64,000 bases of DNA from assembly GCA_021323635.1 (NCBI GenBank), contig JAJPKQ010000007.1:1-64000 (forward strand), in the 5' to 3' direction. The stretch is from a bacterium (GTDB taxonomy: Bacteria; Actinomycetota; Thermoleophilia; Solirubrobacterales; Solirubrobacteraceae). Positions 55,527 to 64,000 of this stretch are shown here, in pieces. The position numbers and the translations under genes were made by a program. The notes under the pieces are model-generated. The model did no database searches. It was not told the DNA's origin and saw only the letters and a list, made by a program, of their open reading frames with translations. Numbering within the stretch: the first letter of the stretch is position 1; each line of letters begins with the position of its first letter.

Positions 55527-56279
55527 CTAGCGGGGCTCCTGCTCACCGGCGCCGGCAAGCGCACGCGCGCGCTCCAGCACCGCATCGATCATCGCCTCGG
55601 TGAGGCGGCCGGTGAAGGTGTTCTGCTGGCTGGGATGAAAGCAGCCCAGCAGCCGGTGGCGCCCAAGCGCGACCTCGGCGCCGTGGGCAAAGCGCGGTCG
55701 CGGGCGCACAGCGCGCGCCTCCTGCTCGAGCAGCCGCAGCGCGGCAGCCCACGCGAAGGCGCCGAGGCAGACGATCACGCGTAGCCCGCCGAGGATCTCA
55801 AGCTCTGCGCGCACATAGGGCAGGCAGGCGTCGCGCTCGGAGGTGGAGGGACGGTTGGCGGGTGGCGCGCAGCGCACCGCCGCGGTGATGTAGACGTCGC
55901 GTAGGCGCAGCGAGTCGGCGCGATGGCGCGAGCTCGGCGCGCTTGCCAGCCCGGCGCGGTGCAGGGCGGCAAAGAGGAAGTCGCCGGAGCGGTCGCCCGT
56001 GAACATGCGCCCGGTGCGGTTTGCGCCGTGGGCGGCGGGTGCCAGGCCGAGCAGCATGATGCGCGCCTGCGGATCGCCGAAGCCCGGCAGCGGGCGGCCC
56101 CAGTACTCCTGATCGCGGAAGGCCGCGCGGCGCTCGCGCGCAACCTGCTCGCGCCAGGCCACCAGCCGCTCGCAGCGCCGGCAGCCGATCACCCGCTCGC
56201 CCAGCTGTGCGAGCGCGAGCGCTCTCCCGCTGCTGCAGGCGCCGTCGGGGGCGCCGCTCGAATACGCTTGCGCAGACAT
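55527..56279 (-). CDS. Uracil-DNA glycosylase, family 5 (UDGb-like)
   Basis: Base-excision repair of uracil in DNA. The 250-residue protein has IGCRRCERLVAWREQVA with the first two Fe-S cysteines, GLAPAAHGANRTGRMFTGD (motif A), TAAVRCAPPANRPS and DACLPY (remaining cysteines), and the late GCFHPSQQNTF motif. Family-5 enzymes carry a [4Fe-4S] cluster and remove uracil and oxidised bases. ATG 56279 shares the CATG with the divergent lipoprotein start at 56278, so both coding regions abut exactly. Confidence 0.9.
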   Translation of the reverse strand: MSAQAYSSGAPDGACSSGRALALAQLGERVIGCRRCERLVAWREQVARERRAAFRDQEYWGRPLPGFGDPQARIMLLGLAPAAHGANRTGRMFTGDRSGDFLFAALHRAGLASAPSSRHRADSLRLRDVYITAAVRCAPPANRPSTSERDACLPYVRAELEILGGLRVIVCLGAFAWAAALRLLEQEARAVRPRPRFAHGAEVALGRHRLLGCFHPSQQNTFTGRLTEAMIDAVLERARALAGAGEQEPR

Positions 56280-56709
56280 GCAGCTCACATCCAAGCAGCC
56301 GCTGTGCCTGGCCTGTGCGATCGCCTCGGCAGCAGCCCTTGCGGGCTGCGGGGGCACCGTCTCGACGGGCTCCTACAGCGGCGAAAGCCACGCGGTGGCG
56401 GAACGCATCTCAGCGTTCCAGCGCGATGCAACCGAAGCAAGCCAGAAGAAGGTCTGCAATGAAGACCTCTCGGCCAAGCTGCGCGAGCAGATCGCAAAGT
56501 CCGGCAAGGGCTGCGAAGAAGCGCTCAAGGAACAGCTCAAGGCGGTGGAGGACATCACGCTTGAAGTCAAGTCGATCTCGGTACAGGGCAAGAGCGCAAG
56601 CGCGCAGGTGAGCAGCACCTACTCGGGCAAGCCCTGCGCCTCGACCCTGCTGCTCGCCAAGGAAGGCAGCGCCTGGCGGATCTCGGGGCAGCGCAGCAGC
56701 TGCAGGTAG
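56278..56709 (+). CDS. Small lipoprotein of unknown function
   Basis: A 143-residue protein with a lipobox AALAGC (Cys24) after a hydrophobic signal, so it is likely lipid-anchored outside. The mature part has two long helical stretches with three cysteines (KKVCNED, GKGCEEAL, GKPCAST, possibly disulfides). It ends with a beta region WRISGQRSSC, suggestive of an NTF2-like fold. TACGCT (56263-56268) lies 9 nt before the ATG. It is the only plus-strand gene after Mrp/citrate synthase in this part. Confidence 0.6.
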   Translation: MQLTSKQPLCLACAIASAAALAGCGGTVSTGSYSGESHAVAERISAFQRDATEASQKKVCNEDLSAKLREQIAKSGKGCEEALKEQLKAVEDITLEVKSISVQGKSASAQVSSTYSGKPCASTLLLAKEGSAWRISGQRSSCR

Positions 56710-56745: not shown

Positions 56746-57759
56746 CTAGCTGCCGGTGAGCGCGCGCCCATAGTGGCGCTCGTAGTAGGCGCGGTAATCC
56801 CCGGAGCGGATCGGCTCCCACCAGGCGCGATTGCGCCGATACCACTCCACCGTCCGCGCAAGCCCCTCTGCAAGCCCGACCGCCGGCGACCAGCCGAGCG
56901 CTTCCACCCGCTCCGAGGAGAGCGAGTAGCGGCGGTCGTGGCCAGGGCGGTCGCGGATGTGCTCGATCTGGGTCTCCGCAGCGCCCGTGAGCGCGACGAT
57001 CTGCCTGACGATATCGATGTTGGCGCACTCGTCGGGGCCGCCGACGTTGTAGACCTCGCCCGCGGCGCCTGCTTCGAGCACGCGGCCGATCGCAGCGGCA
57101 AAGTCGGTCACAAAGAGCCAGTTGCGCACCTGCAGGCCATCGCCGTAGATCGGCAGGTGCTCGCCTTCCAGCGCATTCAGCACCATCAGCGGGATCAGCT
57201 TCTCGGGATACTGATAGGGGCCGTAGTTGTTCGACCCACGGCAGATGCATGCCTGAAGCCCATGGGTGCGGTGGTAGCTCTGCACGAGCAGGTCGGCGCC
57301 GGCCTTGCTTGCCGAGTAGGGCGAGGAGGGAAGCAGCGGCGAGGTCTCGTTGAAGGAGCCCTGCTCGATCGAGCCGTAGACCTCGTCGGTCGAGATCTGG
57401 ATCAACCGCAGCGAGTGGCGACGAGCGGCCTCGAGCAGGGTGAAGGTGCCGAGCACGTTCGTGCGCACAAAGGCATCGGGCGCTTCGATCGAGCGGTCGA
57501 CGTGGGTCTCGGCGGCAAAGTTGACGATCGCCTCGACGCCGGGCAGCGCGCCGAGGGCGCGCTCGACGTCCTGCTCGCTCTCGATCGCGCCCTGAAGGAA
57601 GGTGAAGCCGGGCTCCTGCTCGATGTCGGCCAAGCTCTCGCGCCGCCCGGCGTAGGTGAGCTTGTCGAGCACCAGGATCTGATCTTCGTGCTCGCGCACG
57701 CGGACGCGCACGAAGTTCGAGCCGATGAAGCCCGCCCCGCCGCAGACGATGATCCTCAT
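56746..57759 (-). CDS. rmlB: dTDP-glucose 4,6-dehydratase
   Basis: Second step of dTDP-L-rhamnose synthesis. The 337-residue SDR protein has the NAD motif GGAGFIGSNFV, AETHVDRSI, the active site STDEVYG (Thr-Asp-Glu) with Tyr-Lys in YSASKAGAD, and RGSNNYGPYQYPEKLIPL. Its ATG overlaps the rmlD stop by 4 nt, so it is translated after rmlD. dTDP-rhamnose is used in envelope polysaccharide. Confidence 0.95.
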   Translation of the reverse strand: MRIIVCGGAGFIGSNFVRVRVREHEDQILVLDKLTYAGRRESLADIEQEPGFTFLQGAIESEQDVERALGALPGVEAIVNFAAETHVDRSIEAPDAFVRTNVLGTFTLLEAARRHSLRLIQISTDEVYGSIEQGSFNETSPLLPSSPYSASKAGADLLVQSYHRTHGLQACICRGSNNYGPYQYPEKLIPLMVLNALEGEHLPIYGDGLQVRNWLFVTDFAAAIGRVLEAGAAGEVYNVGGPDECANIDIVRQIVALTGAAETQIEHIRDRPGHDRRYSLSSERVEALGWSPAVGLAEGLARTVEWYRRNRAWWEPIRSGDYRAYYERHYGRALTGS

Positions 57760-58676
57760 GCGCGCATGATTCCAGCTCGCGCCGCAAGATAGCCTTCAAG
57801 CCCCTGCTGCCAGGGCGGGAGCGCGATCACATCCGACCGCTCGCTCGCCAGGGCGGAGTAGGCCGGGCGGGGCGCGGCGCGGCCGCTCTCGGCGCTGCCG
57901 ATTGCCTGGACGCGGCAGTCCAGCTCCGCCTGGCGGAAGATCTCACGCGCAAAGCCACACCAGGAGACCTCGCCGCCCCCTGCAAGGTGAACGATCCCGC
58001 GCACGGAGCGCTCGAGCAACCCGATCAGGGCGGGCGCCAGATGGCCGGTCCAGGTCGGTGTCCCGACCTGGTCATCGACGACTGAGACCGCTCCGCGCTC
58101 CCCTGCCAGCCGCAGCATCGTCGCGACGAAGTTGCGGCCACCCAGCCCAAAGAGCCAGGAGCTGCGCACGATCGTGTGCTGACCGCCGGCCGCTGCCACC
58201 GCCTCCTCGCCGGCGCGCTTGCTCATCCCGTATGCGCCGCAGGGCGCGGGGGGATCTGACTCGCGATAGGGGTCTCCGGGCGCGTGGGCGCCCGCTGCGC
58301 CGGGGCGCACCCCACCGAAGACATAGTCGCTTGAGATGTGCAGCAGCGGTATCGAGCGCGCAGCCGCTGCTTGCGCAAGCAGCCCAGGGCCCTCGGCATT
58401 GACGGCAAAGGCCTCCTCGCGGCGCTGCTCGGCACCGTCCACGTCCGTGAACGCCGCGCAGTTGACGATCGCCGGGGAGGGATCCTCAGACGCCGCGCCG
58501 CTTGCTTCTGCCGGCTCGCCATCCGCCAAGCGCTCGAGCGCCGCGGTCACTTGGCGCTCGTCGCAGATGTCAAGCTGTGCGTGGGGCAGCGCAAGCACGC
58601 GGTGCCCGGCGCGGTCGGCGGCGCGGATCAGGTCGGCGGCAAGCATGCCACCGGCGCCTGTGATCAGAATGCGCAT
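57756..58676 (-). CDS. rmlD: dTDP-4-dehydrorhamnose reductase
   Basis: Last step of dTDP-L-rhamnose synthesis. The 306-residue SDR protein begins MRILITGAGGMLAADLI, and has CAAFTDVDGAE, SSDYVFGG and YGMSKRAGEE (Tyr/Lys pair). An Ala/Glu insertion around residues 50-65 (EPAEASGAASEDP) is unusual. TAGCTT (58683-58688) is 6 nt upstream of the ATG, giving rmlD-rmlB their own near-leaderless promoter. rmlC is not visible in the window. Confidence 0.93.
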   Translation of the reverse strand: MRILITGAGGMLAADLIRAADRAGHRVLALPHAQLDICDERQVTAALERLADGEPAEASGAASEDPSPAIVNCAAFTDVDGAEQRREEAFAVNAEGPGLLAQAAAARSIPLLHISSDYVFGGVRPGAAGAHAPGDPYRESDPPAPCGAYGMSKRAGEEAVAAAGGQHTIVRSSWLFGLGGRNFVATMLRLAGERGAVSVVDDQVGTPTWTGHLAPALIGLLERSVRGIVHLAGGGEVSWCGFAREIFRQAELDCRVQAIGSAESGRAAPRPAYSALASERSDVIALPPWQQGLEGYLAARAGIMRA

Positions 58677-58682
58677 GGCTGG

Positions 58683-58688
58683 AAGCTA
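58683..58688 (-). promoter_or_regulatory. -10-like hexamer of rmlD
   Basis: TAGCTT (TANNNT) on the minus strand ends 6 nt before the rmlD ATG; a probable leaderless promoter separating rmlDB from the WxL-like genes upstream. Confidence 0.35.
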
Positions 58689-58738
58689 GTCGATCTCCCC
58701 CGAGCGGCGCCCAGGTGGCGCGCAGCCGCGAAGCTGCC

Positions 58739-61078
58739 CTACGGCCCGCTTGCAAGCGTCAGCGTCCAGGTGGAGCTGTAGCTGCCCTTGTGGGCATCGG
58801 CGGGCACGGCCAGCTTGAGGTAGCTGACCACGCGCGCCGGGCCGACGCCGCTGCCGGGCTGCGCGTCGAAGATCTTCACCGGCGCCGGCGCCGGTTCACC
58901 GGCGGGGAGGGTGAGCGGGGTGGAGACCGCATTGACCGGCGGGGCGCAGCCGCCTTCCCCGAGGGCAGATTCGTTGCGCGTGATCGTGAGCGCGCCGGAG
59001 GGAAGCGTGGCGCCGGCAACATCCTTGAACGGGGTCGAGGTCGCTTCGATCGACCAGCCGGGCAGCGTAGGCGATTCATCGTCGACCGTCAGCAGGAGCG
59101 CGCTTTCTGCAACCTCGTTCTTGCCGTTCAGGCGCAGCGCGGGCAGCGCAAGGGTGGGCGGCCCGGCAATCGTCGCTTCGCCGCTTGCGCAGGAGCTCTC
59201 GAAGGAGATGATCTCGCCGCCTTCGCCGACCGCAAAGCCGCGCAGCGCATTCGCGAAGGAGACTCCATGTAGGGTCTTTGGCGCCGGGTCATAGATCGTG
59301 CCGCCGTACTTCGCGGAGACTTCGTTGTAGGGGGTGCTCTCGATCGTGCCGCCTTCGCCGACGCCGAAGCAGATACCTGCGGCCGGGCAGCTGCCCGCGT
59401 ACCAGGTCTCCGTTCGTCGCAGTTCCAGTTCGCTCCAGCTTTCACCGCCGTTTGTCGTCTTGTAGGCGTAGCCTTCAGCGCCGCCGATCCAGCATTCGGA
59501 GGCGCTTGCGCAGTCCGCCGCGTAGAAGGTCATCGTGCGCGGCGAGGTGCGTGCGCTCCAGCCTTCGCCGCCGTTGGCGCTCGTGTAGATGGCGCCGCCG
59601 GCGCCGGCGGCAAGGCAGAAGCTGCCGCTGCAGCTGACCGAGTAGAGCGTTTCTGATCCCAGCGGCCCGCGGCTGCTCCACGCTTCGCCGCCGTCGGCGC
59701 TGGTGTAGACGCCTCCGCCTTCGCCCACCGCCACGCAGGCGCCGGCGCTCGTGCAGGAGACCGCCTCCAGCGTGCCGCCGCCAAGGGGCGAGCGCGCCGT
59801 CCATGCTTCGCCGCCGTCGGCGCTCGTAAGCACGGTTCCGGCGGCGCCGACTGCCACGCAGTCGAGCGCCGAGGCGCACGAGACGCCGTCGAGCGCCTCC
59901 GTCGTCGGGGTGCTGTGCAGGGCCCATTCCGAGCCGTTGCTCGTGGTGATGACGGTGCCGGCGGCGCCGACAGCAACGCAGGCAACGATGCCCCCGCAGG
60001 AGACCGCAGCGAGGTTGGCGGTGGTGGGTGAGGGCGGCTGCACCCAACCCATGCCGCCGCCATCGGAGTTGCGCAGGATCTCGGCGACCGCGCCGACCGT
60101 CACGCAGACCAGCCGCGTGGGGCAGGAGATGCCGTAGAGATTGTCGGTCGTGTCCGCTGAGCCGTGCAGCCAGGTTGTGCCGCCGTTCTCGCTGTAGAGC
60201 ATCGTTGCCAGTTCCTGGCCCTTGTCTCCGACGGCGATGCAGCGGATCGTGCTGGTGCAGGCGATCGCATTGAGTTCGTAGGAGACGGTGGAGGCGCTCG
60301 CGCTCCAGGAGGCGCCGCCGGAGCTGCTCTTGAGGATCACCCCGCCGGCGCCGACCGCATAGCAGATCGACCCGCTTGGGCAGTCGACGCCGTTGAGCTG
60401 CGCGGTGCTCCCTGTTTCGCGCGCCATCCAGCCTTCGCCGAAGTTGTCGCTGGTGAGGCTCACCCCGCCGGCGCCGACCGCCACGCAGATGCCGGTGGGC
60501 AGGCAGGAGAGCGCGCGCAGTTCCTGCGCAGTGGACACGCTCACGACGCTGAAGCTTTCACCGCCATTCACAGAGCGCAGCACCGTTCCGGCGGCGCCCA
60601 CCGCGACGCAGTCGCTGGTGGTCGGGCAGGAGACCGCGGCGAGGCTGCTCGTGGTCGGAGAGCTGACCGCGCTCCAAGCTTCGCCGCCGTCGGTCGAGCG
60701 CAGGATCGCTCCACCGGCGCCGACCGCCAGGCAGAGGGTCGTGCTCGCACAGGAGACCGAGCGCAGTTCGGCTGAGCTGGGCGAGGTGCGCTTGCTCCAT
60801 TCCGGTTCGCCGCTGCTTGCGGTCTGCTCGATCGTGCCTTCGGCCCCGACCGCCACACACCACGCGCTTGTCGGGCACGAGACGGAATTGATCGTCGCGG
60901 TGATGCTGCCGCCCACTGTCTGCGGCTCCCACTCGCAGCCGCTCACCGCAAGCGCGCACACCAGGATTAGGAGCGCGGCTGGCGCTCGCGCTGCGCCGAT
61001 GCCCGCGCGGATGCGCCTCAGGCCGCTCGCCTGCGCTCCCCGCGCGTGTGCGCGCTCACGGTCAGAGGCGCTGGCCAT
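58739..61078 (-). CDS. Lipoprotein with 14 propeller-blade repeats and C-terminal WxL-like domain
   Basis: A 779-residue surface protein. After a signal with lipobox VSGC come 14 tandem ~40-residue repeats of the form SC..(5-7)..C-AVG-GT-L-S-GG..W, as in YCF48/BNR-type beta-propellers. The last repeat lacks the Cys pair. Fourteen units would fold as two seven-bladed propellers. The last ~130 residues form a WxL-like domain with GWSIEATSTPF and the terminal STWTLTLASGP, closely matching the end of the small protein at 62161. Glu in the GGE motif is mostly GAA, unlike neighbours that use GAG. ATG 61078 overlaps the upstream gene by 17 nt. Likely a cell-wall adhesin or scaffold. Confidence 0.8.
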   Translation of the reverse strand: MASASDRERAHARGAQASGLRRIRAGIGAARAPAALLILVCALAVSGCEWEPQTVGGSITATINSVSCPTSAWCVAVGAEGTIEQTASSGEPEWSKRTSPSSAELRSVSCASTTLCLAVGAGGAILRSTDGGEAWSAVSSPTTSSLAAVSCPTTSDCVAVGAAGTVLRSVNGGESFSVVSVSTAQELRALSCLPTGICVAVGAGGVSLTSDNFGEGWMARETGSTAQLNGVDCPSGSICYAVGAGGVILKSSSGGASWSASASTVSYELNAIACTSTIRCIAVGDKGQELATMLYSENGGTTWLHGSADTTDNLYGISCPTRLVCVTVGAVAEILRNSDGGGMGWVQPPSPTTANLAAVSCGGIVACVAVGAAGTVITTSNGSEWALHSTPTTEALDGVSCASALDCVAVGAAGTVLTSADGGEAWTARSPLGGGTLEAVSCTSAGACVAVGEGGGVYTSADGGEAWSSRGPLGSETLYSVSCSGSFCLAAGAGGAIYTSANGGEGWSARTSPRTMTFYAADCASASECWIGGAEGYAYKTTNGGESWSELELRRTETWYAGSCPAAGICFGVGEGGTIESTPYNEVSAKYGGTIYDPAPKTLHGVSFANALRGFAVGEGGEIISFESSCASGEATIAGPPTLALPALRLNGKNEVAESALLLTVDDESPTLPGWSIEATSTPFKDVAGATLPSGALTITRNESALGEGGCAPPVNAVSTPLTLPAGEPAPAPVKIFDAQPGSGVGPARVVSYLKLAVPADAHKGSYSSTWTLTLASGP

Positions 61079-62153
61079 GGCCGTAGGCGACCGGCTCGGA
61101 GCGCCTGCGCTCGCGACGGCGCACAAACAACAACAGCAGCAGCGAGACCAGCGCGGCGGCGGCGCAGGCGCCTGCCAGGAGCGCCCAGGGGAGTGGGGTC
61201 CGACGGCGCGCTGTGGGAGCAGCGGAGCTGCTGCCGGCCAGCGGCTGACCCAAGCTCGCAGCGGCGCTGATCGTGACAGCCTGCCCGCAGTCGCTGGCCT
61301 GGGCGGCGATGGTGTAGGCGCCGGGCGCAAGCGGTTGAGGCCAGGGCAGCGGGTAGGGGATCGTATCTCCGGGCAGGATCGCTTCAAGGCGGCGGGAGAC
61401 TGTCCGCGTCGCCCCCTGCGCGCCATGCAGGGTGACCGTAAGCGCGGGCTTGCAGAGCAGGCGGCCGCCATTGCGCAGCGCGACGATCACCGCCGCTCGC
61501 TGCGTGCCGCCAAGCGGGCCGAGCGAGGCGCCCTCGACCTGGATCTGCGCAGCTGCGGGCCCCGGCACGATCACCTCGACGCCGATCACGATGCGCAGGA
61601 TCTGGGTGATCGAGAAGCGCCCTCCCGAGCGGCTGGGGGTGGCATTCTGAAAGGCGATGCCGGCAAGGTGATCGCCCGGCTGGGTGCCGCGCGGCACGCG
61701 CACCGTGAAGGCGAGGCGGCGCGCGCCCCCGGGCGCCAGGGTCACTCTGGCAAGCGCTGGCGTCACCCAGCGACCGGGGCCGTGCATCGCGCTGCCGCGG
61801 CTTGAGTAGACGGCCCCCGACGTCACGCCGGTCAGCCCTTCGACGGGGTAGACGAGGATGCTGACGGTGTGCGATGAGGAGTTGCGCAGAAGCGCTTCCT
61901 CGTGAGCTGTGCCGCCGGCAGCGATGTGCGGACGAAAGTATGAGCGCGTGATCGGTTCGCCGGCGCTGAAGGTCGCCGGGACGGCGGAGATCCCGCCAAG
62001 CTGCGGCGCGCCTTCGCCTGCGAGCGCGCTCGGCGCCGCAGCGGCTGCGAGCGCCAGGATGATGCCGCACCGGCTCGCCAGAGCGCGGCCTCGCGCCAGC
62101 GGGCGCGCTGGCGCAGAGCCGATCATGCCAGCGGGTGGCCGGAGCCCGCTCAT
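61062..62153 (-). CDS. DUF916/DUF3324-type WxL-interacting membrane protein
   Basis: A 363-residue exported protein. A signal peptide (cleavage near SALA/GE) precedes an N-terminal DUF916-like beta domain (VYPVEGLTGVTSGAVYSSRG, RRLAFTVRVPRGTQPGDHLAGI). A second beta domain follows (RNGGRLLCKPALTVTLHG, LAPGAYTI), then one transmembrane helix (about 318-342) and an Arg-rich cytoplasmic tail. In Firmicutes such proteins (WxIP) anchor to peptidoglycan and bind WxL proteins. Here the gene sits between two WxL-like proteins, which strongly supports the same pairing. It starts 7 nt after the small WxL gene. Confidence 0.82.
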   Translation of the reverse strand: MSGLRPPAGMIGSAPARPLARGRALASRCGIILALAAAAAPSALAGEGAPQLGGISAVPATFSAGEPITRSYFRPHIAAGGTAHEEALLRNSSSHTVSILVYPVEGLTGVTSGAVYSSRGSAMHGPGRWVTPALARVTLAPGGARRLAFTVRVPRGTQPGDHLAGIAFQNATPSRSGGRFSITQILRIVIGVEVIVPGPAAAQIQVEGASLGPLGGTQRAAVIVALRNGGRLLCKPALTVTLHGAQGATRTVSRRLEAILPGDTIPYPLPWPQPLAPGAYTIAAQASDCGQAVTISAAASLGQPLAGSSSAAPTARRRTPLPWALLAGACAAAALVSLLLLLFVRRRERRRSEPVAYGHGQRL

Positions 62154-62160
62154 CGCCCGC

Positions 62161-62760
62161 CTATGGGCCGCTCACAAGCGAGAATTCCCAGGTAGCGGTG
62201 TAGGTGCCCTTGTATGCGTTCCCGGGCACCGTCAGCGACCAGGTTGGTGTGACCGTCTGATTGCCCATGCCGCTGTTTTCGGCGGCGTCGTACATCTTTG
62301 TAGCGGTGGGCATCGTTTCCCCGGCCGGCAGCGTGTAGGGGTAGCTGATCGCGTTTGACGCAAGCGTGCACGTGGCTCCTGCGTCGCATGCGTCGCTCGG
62401 CGCCGAGCCGATCGTCGTCGCCGTGCTCAGCAGGGCATGGGTGCCGTTCTTGAAGACGGTCGATGTCGCGGTGATGTTCCACCCCGCCCCGGTGCCGCGG
62501 GCGTCGCTGACGTCGAAAGGCTGGCCCTTGGTGATGACGATGTTCTTGCCCGTGATCCTGGTGGCCGGAAAGGCCACAGCAGCGGGCGTCGATTCGATGA
62601 ATTCAAAGCCGCCTTCGGTGAGTTCCTCGCTTGCCGCGACGCTCACGCCCGTGGCGCTAGCCTGGCCGGCGACGCTGAGCATGCCGGCCGCTGCTGCAAC
62701 CAGCGCCAGCGCAATCTGCCAGCGCGCCTGAAAAAGAGATCGCAAACCATCCATGGTCAT
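62161..62760 (-). CDS. Small secreted WxL-domain-like protein
   Basis: A 199-residue secreted protein with signal peptide cleaved around ASA/TG (residue 36). The mature part is one WxL-like domain with ITGKNIVITKGQPFDVSDARG, GAGWNITATSTVFKNG (Trp94) and the C-terminal TPTWSLTVPGNAYKGTYTAT then WEFSLVSGP (Trp174, Trp191). The V-D-RG-GAGW and GTYTAT-W patterns match WxL domains that attach to Gram-positive cell walls. GAA is favoured for Glu, unlike most genes here. A GAGG sequence precedes ATG 62760. First gene of the WxL-like operon. Confidence 0.78.
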   Translation of the reverse strand: MTMDGLRSLFQARWQIALALVAAAAGMLSVAGQASATGVSVAASEELTEGGFEFIESTPAAVAFPATRITGKNIVITKGQPFDVSDARGTGAGWNITATSTVFKNGTHALLSTATTIGSAPSDACDAGATCTLASNAISYPYTLPAGETMPTATKMYDAAENSGMGNQTVTPTWSLTVPGNAYKGTYTATWEFSLVSGP

Positions 62761-63014
62761 TGCCTGACCTCGCTTTCCTCATTCCTTGCGCACTCGGGCG
62801 CAGGGCCGGCGGCAGGGCGCTGCGAGCCGTCCGGTCGATTGCGCTCGCGGGTCGCAGCGGCCCCTCAGTGGCAAGAGACAACCGCCGGGGCAACCCGTGC
62901 GCGGTTTGTGGCTATAGATCACTCATCGGTCGCTCGGGCCGACAGCTTGAGCCCTTTTTGGGCTTGCTGCACGCGAGCTTGCAGCGCGAGCGTCGTGGAT
63001 TCTCAGCGCCGCTG
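62761..63014 (-). promoter_or_regulatory. Promoter and leader region of the WxL-like operon
   Basis: About 250 nt between rmlA and the small WxL gene on the minus strand, without a gene. It holds a -10-like TATAGC in a small AT-rich patch, followed by a long GC-rich leader of roughly 150 nt with several complementary segments (GCCCC/GGGGC among them). I could not match it to a known riboswitch. Confidence 0.3.
62950..62964 (-). terminator. Possible terminator after rmlA
   Basis: On the minus strand AGCCC, loop AAAAA, GGGCT forms a 5-bp hairpin about 50 nt past the rmlA stop. A second short hairpin (GCTGCA/TGCAGC) lies just before it. Confidence 0.35.
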
Positions 63015-64000
63015 CTATGGGATCGCGACTTCGGAGTTGTCGCCGACCATGAAGCGGTAGGCGCGCGGCGCACCGCGATCGCGGCCGATGCGCACGTTGC
63101 GACCAAGCAGCGAGGACTCGATCCGCCCGTCGATGTCGCTGATCGAGCAGCCCGCCAGCAGGATCGAGTGCTCGACCTCCGCGCGCTCAAGCGTGCAGCC
63201 ATCGCCGATCGCCGTATAGGGGCCGATGTAGCAGTCTGAGATCTGGGCGCCCGCGCCGATGATCGCCGGCCCGCGCACGCGCGTGCGCAGCAGGCGCGCT
63301 CCCGCTGCGACCTGCACGCGCCCCTCCACCGTCGTCTCGACCAGCTCGCCCTCCAGCGATGCCCCGATCGCATCGAGGATCAGGCGGTTGGCCTCGAGCA
63401 TGTCTTCGAGCCGGCCGGTGTCCTTCCACCAGCCCTCGACGATGTGCGGCTCGACGCGGCCGCCGCCGTCGATGATCGACTGGATCGCATCGGTGATCTC
63501 AAGCTCGCCGCGCGCTGACGGCGAGATCGAGCGCGCGGCTGCATGGATGCGTGCCGTGAACATGTACACGCCCACGAGCGCGAGGTCGCTCGGCGGCTGC
63601 TTGGGCTTCTCGATCAGCCGCACAACGCGCATCGCGCCCCCTGGCGCGCTCGCAAGCTCGGCGACGCCGTAGCTCTCCGGGTCATCTACAGGGGTGAGCA
63701 GGATGAGGGCATCCGGCGCGCTTGCCCTGAAGGCGGCGACGAGATCCTGGATCCCGCCCTGCAGGAGGTTGTCGCCAAGGTACATCACAAATGAGCTCTC
63801 CCCGAGAAAGGGCTCGGCGGTGAGCACCGCGTGGGCCAGGCCGAGCGGCGCCTGTTGGGGGATGTAGGTGATCTGCGCGCCGAAGCGCTCGCCCGATCCC
63901 GCCGCAGCTTCGATCTCCGCCGCTGTCTGCGGGGCGACGATCACGCCGATCTGCGTGATCCCGGCCGCCACGAGCGCCTCGATGCCGTAGAAGAGAACGG
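63015..64000 (-). CDS. rmlA: Glucose-1-phosphate thymidylyltransferase (partial, start outside the window)
   Basis: First step of dTDP-L-rhamnose synthesis, dTTP plus glucose-1-phosphate to dTDP-glucose. The visible 327-residue part begins inside the nucleotidyltransferase domain (VLFYGIEALVAAGI); the N-terminal GGxGTRL loop lies beyond position 64000. It contains YIPQQAPLGLAHAV, YLGDN, EKP and GWWKDTGR typical of RmlA. A C-terminal left-handed beta-helix follows, of the long actinobacterial type (VRGPAIIGAGAQISDCYIGPYTAIGDGC). It faces the same way as the WxL-like genes and rmlDB. Confidence 0.93.
   Translation of the reverse strand, partial: VLFYGIEALVAAGITQIGVIVAPQTAAEIEAAAGSGERFGAQITYIPQQAPLGLAHAVLTAEPFLGESSFVMYLGDNLLQGGIQDLVAAFRASAPDALILLTPVDDPESYGVAELASAPGGAMRVVRLIEKPKQPPSDLALVGVYMFTARIHAAARSISPSARGELEITDAIQSIIDGGGRVEPHIVEGWWKDTGRLEDMLEANRLILDAIGASLEGELVETTVEGRVQVAAGARLLRTRVRGPAIIGAGAQISDCYIGPYTAIGDGCTLERAEVEHSILLAGCSISDIDGRIESSLLGRNVRIGRDRGAPRAYRFMVGDNSEVAIP

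What the first reader, a model, noticed from the sequence alone, without database searches (positions are those of the whole stretch)
58739..62760. A WxL-type cell-surface system in a high-GC actinobacterium
Three adjacent minus-strand genes encode: a small secreted WxL-like protein; a membrane-anchored DUF916/DUF3324-type protein, the known WxL partner in Firmicutes; and a large lipoprotein whose last ~130 residues repeat the same domain. The domain ends are alike (STWTLTLASGP and TATWEFSLVSGP), as are the internal segments GWSIEATSTPF and GWNITATSTVF. WxL systems are characterised almost only in low-GC Gram-positives, where they bind peptidoglycan and host or plant polymers. A lipoprotein-anchored, propeller-bearing version appears unusual. 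The cluster layout is seen directly; surface assembly is inferred.
Basis: partly seen in the sequence, partly recalled or inferred. Interest (0 to 1): 0.85.

Follow-up and report, generated by a model that had tools for sequence, protein, structure and literature searches.

The report
WxL surface operon in soil actinobacterium
A bacterium of the soil family Solirubrobacteraceae carries, dropped into its rhamnose-sugar operon, a complete three-gene surface-display set known until now almost only from gut firmicutes, here showing a double propeller-shaped protein at the cell surface; relatives of the set turn out to be spread through the whole phylum of Actinobacteria.

Summary
Three tightly packed minus-strand genes (62760-58739) encode a small WxL protein (Pfam PF13731, 1.8e-7, over cut-off), a WxLIP-type membrane protein (DUF916 weak on its own, but 15/16 homologues match PF06030 and the family profile matches the solved E. 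faecium WxLIP1 at 4e-14) and a lipoprotein with about 14 Ycf48/BNR propeller blades and a C-terminal WxL domain 43% identical to the small one. This is the canonical minimal WxL cluster in the same gene order as in Listeria innocua. The same trio with a propeller recurs in five other Solirubrobacteraceae/Solirubrobacterales genomes, and WxL-WxLIP pairs occur across Actinomycetota, carrying peptidases, phosphatases, GDPD, HtaA, CBM96 or ice-binding domains instead. In all 21 comparable congeners rmlA and rmlD abut; here the trio sits between them, and its WxLIP groups with other genera, so it was probably acquired horizontally. The lipobox was seen only in the window copy. Novel reading not excluded: the WxL model resembles chaperone-usher pilins, so WxLIP may act as a donor-strand chaperone. 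New variant of a known kind.

The parts
62161..62760 (-). small WxL protein, 199 aa, signal peptide about residues 1-36 then one WxL domain
   Evidence: PF13731 1.8e-7 over cut-off; AF2 model mean pLDDT 88, domain core about 97
62458..62505 (-). WxL motif 1 of the small protein (DARGTGAGWNITATST, residues 86-101)
   Evidence: W94 and the turn before it are near-invariant in 44 homologues and present in Listeria WxL
62164..62202 (-). WxL motif 2 of the small protein (YTATWEFSLVSGP, residues 187-199, C-terminus)
   Evidence: sequence; W191 invariant in 8 close homologues, lost in most other actinobacterial small WxLs
61062..62153 (-). WxLIP-like protein, 363 aa: signal peptide, two Ig-like domains (DUF916/DUF3324 type), one TM helix, basic C-terminal tail
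   Evidence: PF06030 8.7e-4 in this copy, 15/16 homologues; profile vs solved EfmWxLIP1 9i1y/9i25 E=4e-14; TM from hydropathy
61125..61196 (-). C-terminal transmembrane helix of the WxLIP-like protein, followed by RRRERRRSE
   Evidence: hydropathy, sequence
58739..61078 (-). large WxL protein, 779 aa lipoprotein: lipobox, tandem beta-propeller, C-terminal WxL domain
   Evidence: PSII_BNR 6.2e-19; PDB Ycf48 hits 4.7e-12; AF2 model
60935..60946 (-). lipobox VSGC, predicted lipidated Cys48
   Evidence: sequence after hydrophobic stretch APAALLILVCALAVSGC
60059..60907 (-). propeller blades 1-7 (residues 58-340), each with a C-x5-C pair
   Evidence: 13 C-x4/5-C repeats with period 41 aa / 123 nt over both propellers; model confidence moderate, poor at 287-343
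59192..60049 (-). propeller blades 8-14 (residues 344-629), a closed seven-bladed propeller in the model
   Evidence: VIA-align Z about 30-32, rmsd 2.3, 276 aligned residues with seven-bladed propellers
58742..59191 (-). C-terminal WxL domain of the large protein (residues 630-779)
   Evidence: 43% identity to the small WxL, 4.7e-25; in-house WxL profile 2e-39
63015..63998 (-). rmlA (truncated by window edge), upstream flank
   Evidence: TIGR01208 1.4e-114
57756..58676 (-). rmlD, downstream flank
   Evidence: TIGR01214 5.6e-81
56746..57759 (-). rmlB, downstream flank
   Evidence: TIGR01181 1.3e-132

Best explanation
It is a complete WxL surface-display operon of the known minimal kind (small WxL, WxLIP, large WxL) in a Solirubrobacteraceae genome, probably acquired horizontally as one block into the rmlA-rmlD-rmlB operon. 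Shown by sequence: three co-directional, nearly overlapping genes; two homologous WxL domains, one alone and one at the C-terminus of a tandem Ycf48-like propeller; a WxLIP homologue with a C-terminal membrane helix; a lipobox on the large protein. Inferred: WxLIP sits in the bacterium's own membrane with its Ig-like domains outside, binds and stabilises the WxL domains (as predicted by others for the E. faecium pair), and thereby holds the large protein's double propeller at the wall, where it binds an unknown protein or glycan ligand; the lipid anchor in this copy gives a second attachment point.
For: WxL over the Pfam cut-off and all 18 aligned homologues match PF13731; hhalign of the actinobacterial WxL family to a Listeria WxL P=3.6e-11. 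WxLIP family: 15/16 match PF06030, 6/16 PF11797, solved EfmWxLIP1 4e-14, L. curvatus WxLIP 4.6e-10. Same gene order small WxL-WxLIP-large in Listeria innocua. Same trio with propeller in G234 (two loci), G667, G669, G672 and L198. In the phylum-wide sample every genome with a WxL hit (21 of 56 WxLIP-positive genomes) has it within about 3 kb of a WxLIP gene. Horizontal entry: rmlA and rmlD abut (0 to about 150 bp) in all 21 congeners with the orthologous rmlD, versus 4.3 kb in the window; the window WxLIP falls in a clade of 21 rows (100/99) with no other member of its own genus, while four congeners carry a distant WxL lineage. TM placement: positive tail after the helix; some homologues have C-terminal domains after it that belong in the cytosol (DUF3892 over cut-off, GGDEF-like below cut-off).
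Against: No experiment. The window's middle protein and the large protein's WxL domain are below Pfam cut-offs alone. Motif 2 is W-E-F rather than W-x-L in the small protein, and both first motifs are W-x-I. No ligand for the propeller is known. WxLIP-WxL binding was not modelled here (no multimer tool). No repeats or integrase mark the insertion, so the mode of entry is unknown, and it rests on one MAG contig.
Confidence: 0.8

Rival explanations
1. WxL-WxLIP is a monoderm counterpart of a chaperone-pilin pair: the WxL domain is an incomplete, pilin-like Ig fold completed by a strand donated by WxLIP, the small WxL can pass its N-terminal strand to another WxL domain, and the large WxL is the tip-adhesin equivalent (binding domain first, pilin-like domain last).
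For: Model of the small WxL aligns best with FimA, PapA, FimG and related pilins over residues 50-198 (Z up to 8.2, rmsd about 3, about 120 residues; the first 29 rows are pilus subunits or adhesin pilin domains). hhalign of WxL with 11 E. coli K-12 pilins P=7e-5 against 0.05-0.5 for controls, but only 30 columns and in another register. Published AF2 work predicts a WxLIP hairpin strand filling a gap in WxL in parallel orientation (PMC10599100). Small WxLs have a conserved N-terminal tail that the window's large WxL lacks.
Against: Z near 8 is within the range the tool calls common; Foldseek E only 0.04. No sequence link between WxLIP and PapD-type chaperones. WxL is reported to bind peptidoglycan. 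Some large WxLs keep the tail (L045, L060).
Confidence: 0.2
2. The trio functionally belongs to dTDP-rhamnose or surface-glycan synthesis and modifies or binds the rhamnan it helps make.
For: It lies between rmlA and rmlD on the same strand; some other Thermoleophilia WxL loci lie near weakly similar SDR epimerases.
Against: No clear rmlA, rmlB or rmlD orthologue lies near any of the other WxL loci examined, and all congeners have the rml operon without the trio.
Confidence: 0.1
3. The resemblance is generic: secreted Ser/Thr/Gly-rich beta-sandwich proteins that happen to lie together, not a WxL system.
For: Window copies of WxLIP and large WxL domain are below Pfam cut-offs.
Against: Family-level profiles, solved-structure match and conserved neighbourhood.
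Confidence: 0.03

Closest known systems
WxL / WxLIP clusters (Csc clusters) of Firmicutes, e.g. Listeria innocua plasmid NZ_CP095725, E. faecium EfmWxLIP1, L. plantarum csc
   Same: same three components, same order small WxL-WxLIP-large WxL, WxL domain C-terminal, WxLIP of similar length with C-terminal TM helix
   Different: high-GC actinobacterium; W-x-I / W-E-F variants of the motifs; motif spacing 96-97 residues in both small and large (published 106 and 68); propeller instead of adhesin/LRR domains; lipobox on the large protein; no LPxTG protein noticed among the neighbouring genes
Ycf48 / HCF136 photosystem II assembly lipoproteins (PDB 2xbg, 5oj5, 8am5)
   Same: BNR/Asp-box-type seven-bladed propeller; Ycf48 is also a lipoprotein
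   Different: two propellers in tandem, a Cys pair in nearly every blade, C-terminal WxL domain; NCBIfam Ycf48 equivalog cut-off not met
Chaperone-usher pilins and PapD-like chaperones (FimA/FimC)
   Same: predicted fold of the WxL domain resembles the pilin body; partner with two Ig-like domains (published for WxLIP)
   Different: no sequence support for the chaperone link, membrane-anchored partner, no usher seen
DUF916 domain-containing proteins of Actinomycetota (annotated in Clavibacter and Arthrobacter plasmids)
   Same: homologous WxLIP_PGBD
   Different: annotated only as DUF916; the preceding gene in Clavibacter is a hypothetical protein without Pfam match

Membership tests
WxL cluster (small WxL + WxLIP + large WxL) | small secreted protein consisting of one WxL domain | tested here: met
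   PF13731 1.8e-7, over cut-off
WxL cluster (small WxL + WxLIP + large WxL) | large protein with C-terminal WxL domain | tested here: met
   43% identity to small WxL, 4.7e-25; Pfam alone 0.13, below cut-off, but the Listeria innocua third protein also escapes Pfam WxL
WxL cluster (small WxL + WxLIP + large WxL) | adjacent WxLIP protein with DUF916 (PGBD) | tested here: met
   8.7e-4 in this copy, family 15/16, solved EfmWxLIP1 4e-14
WxL cluster (small WxL + WxLIP + large WxL) | DUF3324 (HBD) following DUF916 | tested here: inconclusive
   no Pfam hit in the window copy, 6/16 homologues match, profile aligns over both domains of EfmWxLIP1
WxL cluster (small WxL + WxLIP + large WxL) | two Trp-x-Leu motifs in the WxL domain | tested here: inconclusive
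   both Trp present in both proteins, but WNI/WEF and WSI/WTL; motif-2 Trp lost in most other actinobacterial small copies
WxL cluster (small WxL + WxLIP + large WxL) | C-terminal transmembrane helix on WxLIP | tested here: met
   hydropathy, residues about 320-343
WxL cluster (small WxL + WxLIP + large WxL) | binding of WxL to peptidoglycan and to WxLIP | not testable with these tools
   needs biochemistry or multimer modelling
Ycf48-type propeller | seven-bladed BNR propeller | tested here: met
   PF14870 6.2e-19, Foldseek Ycf48 TM-score 0.73, C-terminal propeller Z about 31 with seven-bladed folds
Ycf48-type propeller | NCBIfam Ycf48 equivalog cut-off (orthologue of Ycf48) | tested here: not met
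   70.7 bits against a cut-off of 326
Chaperone-usher pilin | pilin fold with incomplete Ig sandwich | tested here: inconclusive
   Z up to 8.2; hhalign P=7e-5 over 30 columns
PapD-like chaperone (for WxLIP) | sequence similarity to PapD-type chaperones | tested here: not met
   hhalign probability under 1%

The most novel reading that the evidence does not exclude
WxL-WxLIP is a general donor-strand chaperone/pilin-like display system of single-membrane bacteria, not a gut-firmicute peptidoglycan anchor: WxLIP is a membrane-tethered chaperone that completes the WxL fold, small WxLs hand their N-terminal strand on, and large WxLs present exchangeable cargo (propellers, peptidases, phosphatases).
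Probability: 0.18. Interest if true: 0.85.

Novelty: new variant of a known kind. Interest (0 to 1): 0.55.

Why it matters
Published surveys (PMC9772566) describe WxL proteins as more than 91% firmicute and mainly from gut commensals, and PMC10599100 explains them as host-binding platforms whose membrane helix enters host cells. Finding the full cluster in soil-type Actinobacteria, with enzyme or propeller cargo and, in some WxLIPs, cytosolic-type domains behind the helix, argues that the core function is display on the bacterium's own envelope, independent of animal hosts. It also gives a free-living group in which to test how WxLIP holds WxL.

Tried and rejected
No WxL chain was found among solved structures with the actinobacterial profile or with a Listeria WxL. 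PapD-like chaperones showed no profile match to WxLIP. Conserved link to rhamnose genes: rejected. Mobile-element traces at the insertion: no flanking repeats, tRNA or Rfam RNA; the promoter scan found nothing and the terminator scan nothing beyond chance. A first whole-alignment scan of genome contigs failed for lack of conserved stretches; a narrower one found 17 loci. No paper in the library joins WxL domain with Thermoleophilia, and none of the titles listed for WxL with Streptomyces concerns actinobacterial WxL clusters (titles only, not read).

Full report
OBSERVATION. The first gap is 7 nt and the second pair overlaps by 17 nt. Flanks are rmlA upstream (254 bp away) and rmlD, rmlB downstream (62 bp away), all co-directional. 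The resemblance between the ends of the small protein and the lipoprotein is real homology: 43% identity over 142 residues, E=4.7e-25.

IDENTITY OF THE PARTS. The small protein matches PF13731 WxL at 1.8e-7, over the curated cut-off. The middle protein matches PF06030 (WxLIP_PGBD) at 8.7e-4, below cut-off, and has no PF11797 match. The lipoprotein matches PSII_BNR (Ycf48) at 6.2e-19 and WxL at 0.13. Homologues settle the weak cases: of an alignment of 16 WxLIPs (window and 15 other loci) 15 match PF06030 (best 1.5e-10) and 6 match PF11797. The profile of this family finds only one solved protein with significance, EfmWxLIP1 of Enterococcus faecium (9i1y, 9i25), at 4e-14 over both Ig-like domains. 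A Listeria innocua WxL aligns with the family at P=3.6e-11; its cluster has the same gene order, and its third protein, like ours, escapes the Pfam WxL model although it ends in a WxL motif.

MOTIFS. Both domains keep both tryptophans, but as WNI/WEF and WSI/WTL; spacing is 97 and 96 residues, where published values are 106 for small and 68 for large WxLs (PMC9772566). By my regular-expression census of loci largely chosen for WxL hits, the first Trp is near-universal in actinobacterial copies, and a Trp in the last 16 residues is kept in 25 of 78 small and 20 of 38 large ones, largely in Solirubrobacteraceae.

PROPELLER. The lipoprotein has 13 repeats of about 41 residues with a Cys pair plus one without, so 14 blades. 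The second half (344-629) is modelled as a closed seven-bladed propeller (Z about 30-32 with seven-bladed folds); the first half is modelled less well, with a gap in confidence at 287-343. Two seven-bladed propellers in tandem is the simplest reading. The best sequence match in the PDB is Ycf48 (4.7e-12); the Ycf48 equivalog cut-off of NCBIfam is not met. No enzyme family with a curated match was found in it. The lipobox VSGC48 was seen only in this copy; other propeller-bearing large WxLs examined have plain signal peptides.

DISTRIBUTION. With Pfam WxL, 26 of 299 genomes of the class match at E<=0.01, 23 over cut-off. With the WxLIP profile, 82 of 396 genomes across the phylum match at 1e-4. 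Of 56 of these searched for WxL, 21 match, and in each the WxL lies within about 3 kb of a WxLIP gene (one search read; two are divergent). In fetched loci 49 of 60 WxLIP genes have a WxL gene directly upstream on the same strand; these loci were mostly chosen for WxL hits, so this number is biased upward. The trio with a propeller occurs in the window, G234 (two loci), G667, G669, G672 and L198; named records matching such loci are Solirubrobacteraceae, Patulibacter and Solirubrobacterales MAGs. L050 has PKD plus a lactonase-type propeller instead. Elsewhere the WxL-like domain follows peptidase M64, X-Pro peptidase S15, purple acid phosphatase, GDPD, HtaA, CBM96, fn3, ice-binding-like or TIG domains.

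ORIGIN HERE. All 21 other genomes of the genus with the orthologous rmlD have rmlA ending 0 to about 150 bp before rmlD; the window alone has 4.3 kb between them. The window WxLIP falls in a clade of 21 sequences (support 100/99) from other genera and families, while four congeners have a distant WxL type elsewhere in their genomes. Together this argues for horizontal acquisition of the trio as a block into the rml operon. No mobile-element signature was found. The proposal rests on one MAG contig.

HOW IT PROBABLY WORKS. Shown: secretion signals, the lipobox, the WxLIP transmembrane helix with a strongly basic tail (sequence and hydropathy). Inferred: WxLIP lies in the bacterium's own cytoplasmic membrane, Ig-like domains outside. 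Published work proposed that this helix enters host membranes (PMC10599100). Against that, some actinobacterial WxLIPs carry DUF3892 (over cut-off) or GGDEF-like remnants (below cut-off) after the helix, domains expected in the cytosol. The published AF2 models have a WxLIP strand completing the WxL sandwich. By homology the window WxLIP should hold the small WxL and the lipoprotein's WxL domain, presenting the double propeller at the wall. The ligand is unknown.

NOVEL READING. The small WxL model (mean pLDDT 88) aligns best with chaperone-usher pilins (Z up to 8.2, about 120 residues, rmsd about 3), though Foldseek gives only E=0.04 and such Z values are common. A profile comparison with E. 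coli K-12 pilins gave P=7e-5 against 0.05-0.5 for controls, over 30 columns in a register that disagrees with the fold alignment. WxLIP shows no sequence link to PapD-like chaperones. I consider a donor-strand mechanism possible (0.18), not shown.

VERDICT. The observation and its interpretation are supported. The cluster is a member of the WxL/WxLIP kind with new cargo, new motif variants, a lipid anchor and a phylum-wide range not described in the papers found.

Noticed in passing
window 56746-63998: The trio interrupts an rmlA-rmlD-rmlB operon that is uninterrupted between rmlA and rmlD in all 21 comparable congeners.
   Followed up: yes
L180:7859-12753, L186:3894-5822, L189:6160-8496, L190:3395-5392, L192:4634-6142, L175:6466-7632, L177:6761-8233: C-terminal WxL-like domains follow secreted enzymes and binding domains (M64, S15, purple acid phosphatase, GDPD, HtaA, ice-binding-like, CBM96) next to WxLIP genes in other Actinomycetota.
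   Followed up: partly
L042:8241-8657, L046:2819-3244, L048:2484-2804: Some WxLIPs carry GGDEF-like (below cut-off) or DUF3892 (over cut-off) domains after the transmembrane helix, hinting at signalling across the membrane.
   Followed up: partly
L183:4912-6777: One open frame joins a WxLIP with an Era-like GTPase plus KH domain; real fusion, lost stop or gene-calling artefact not resolved.
   Followed up: no
L041, L057, L063, L064: In family f7 the WxL-WxLIP loci lie beside genes weakly similar to rmlB (SDR epimerase-type).
   Followed up: no
L206: A WxL homologue close to the Solirubrobacteraceae type in a MAG labelled Mycobacterium; the label or binning may be wrong.
   Followed up: no
window 56278-56709 (+): Small putative lipoprotein (AGC lipobox) with a sub-threshold lumazine-binding-2 match, convergent with rmlB.
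   Followed up: no
L045:10046-10612, L060:9827-10360: A second type of small WxL starts directly at a C-x-x-GG-L segment without the N-terminal tail, as in many large WxLs.
   Followed up: partly
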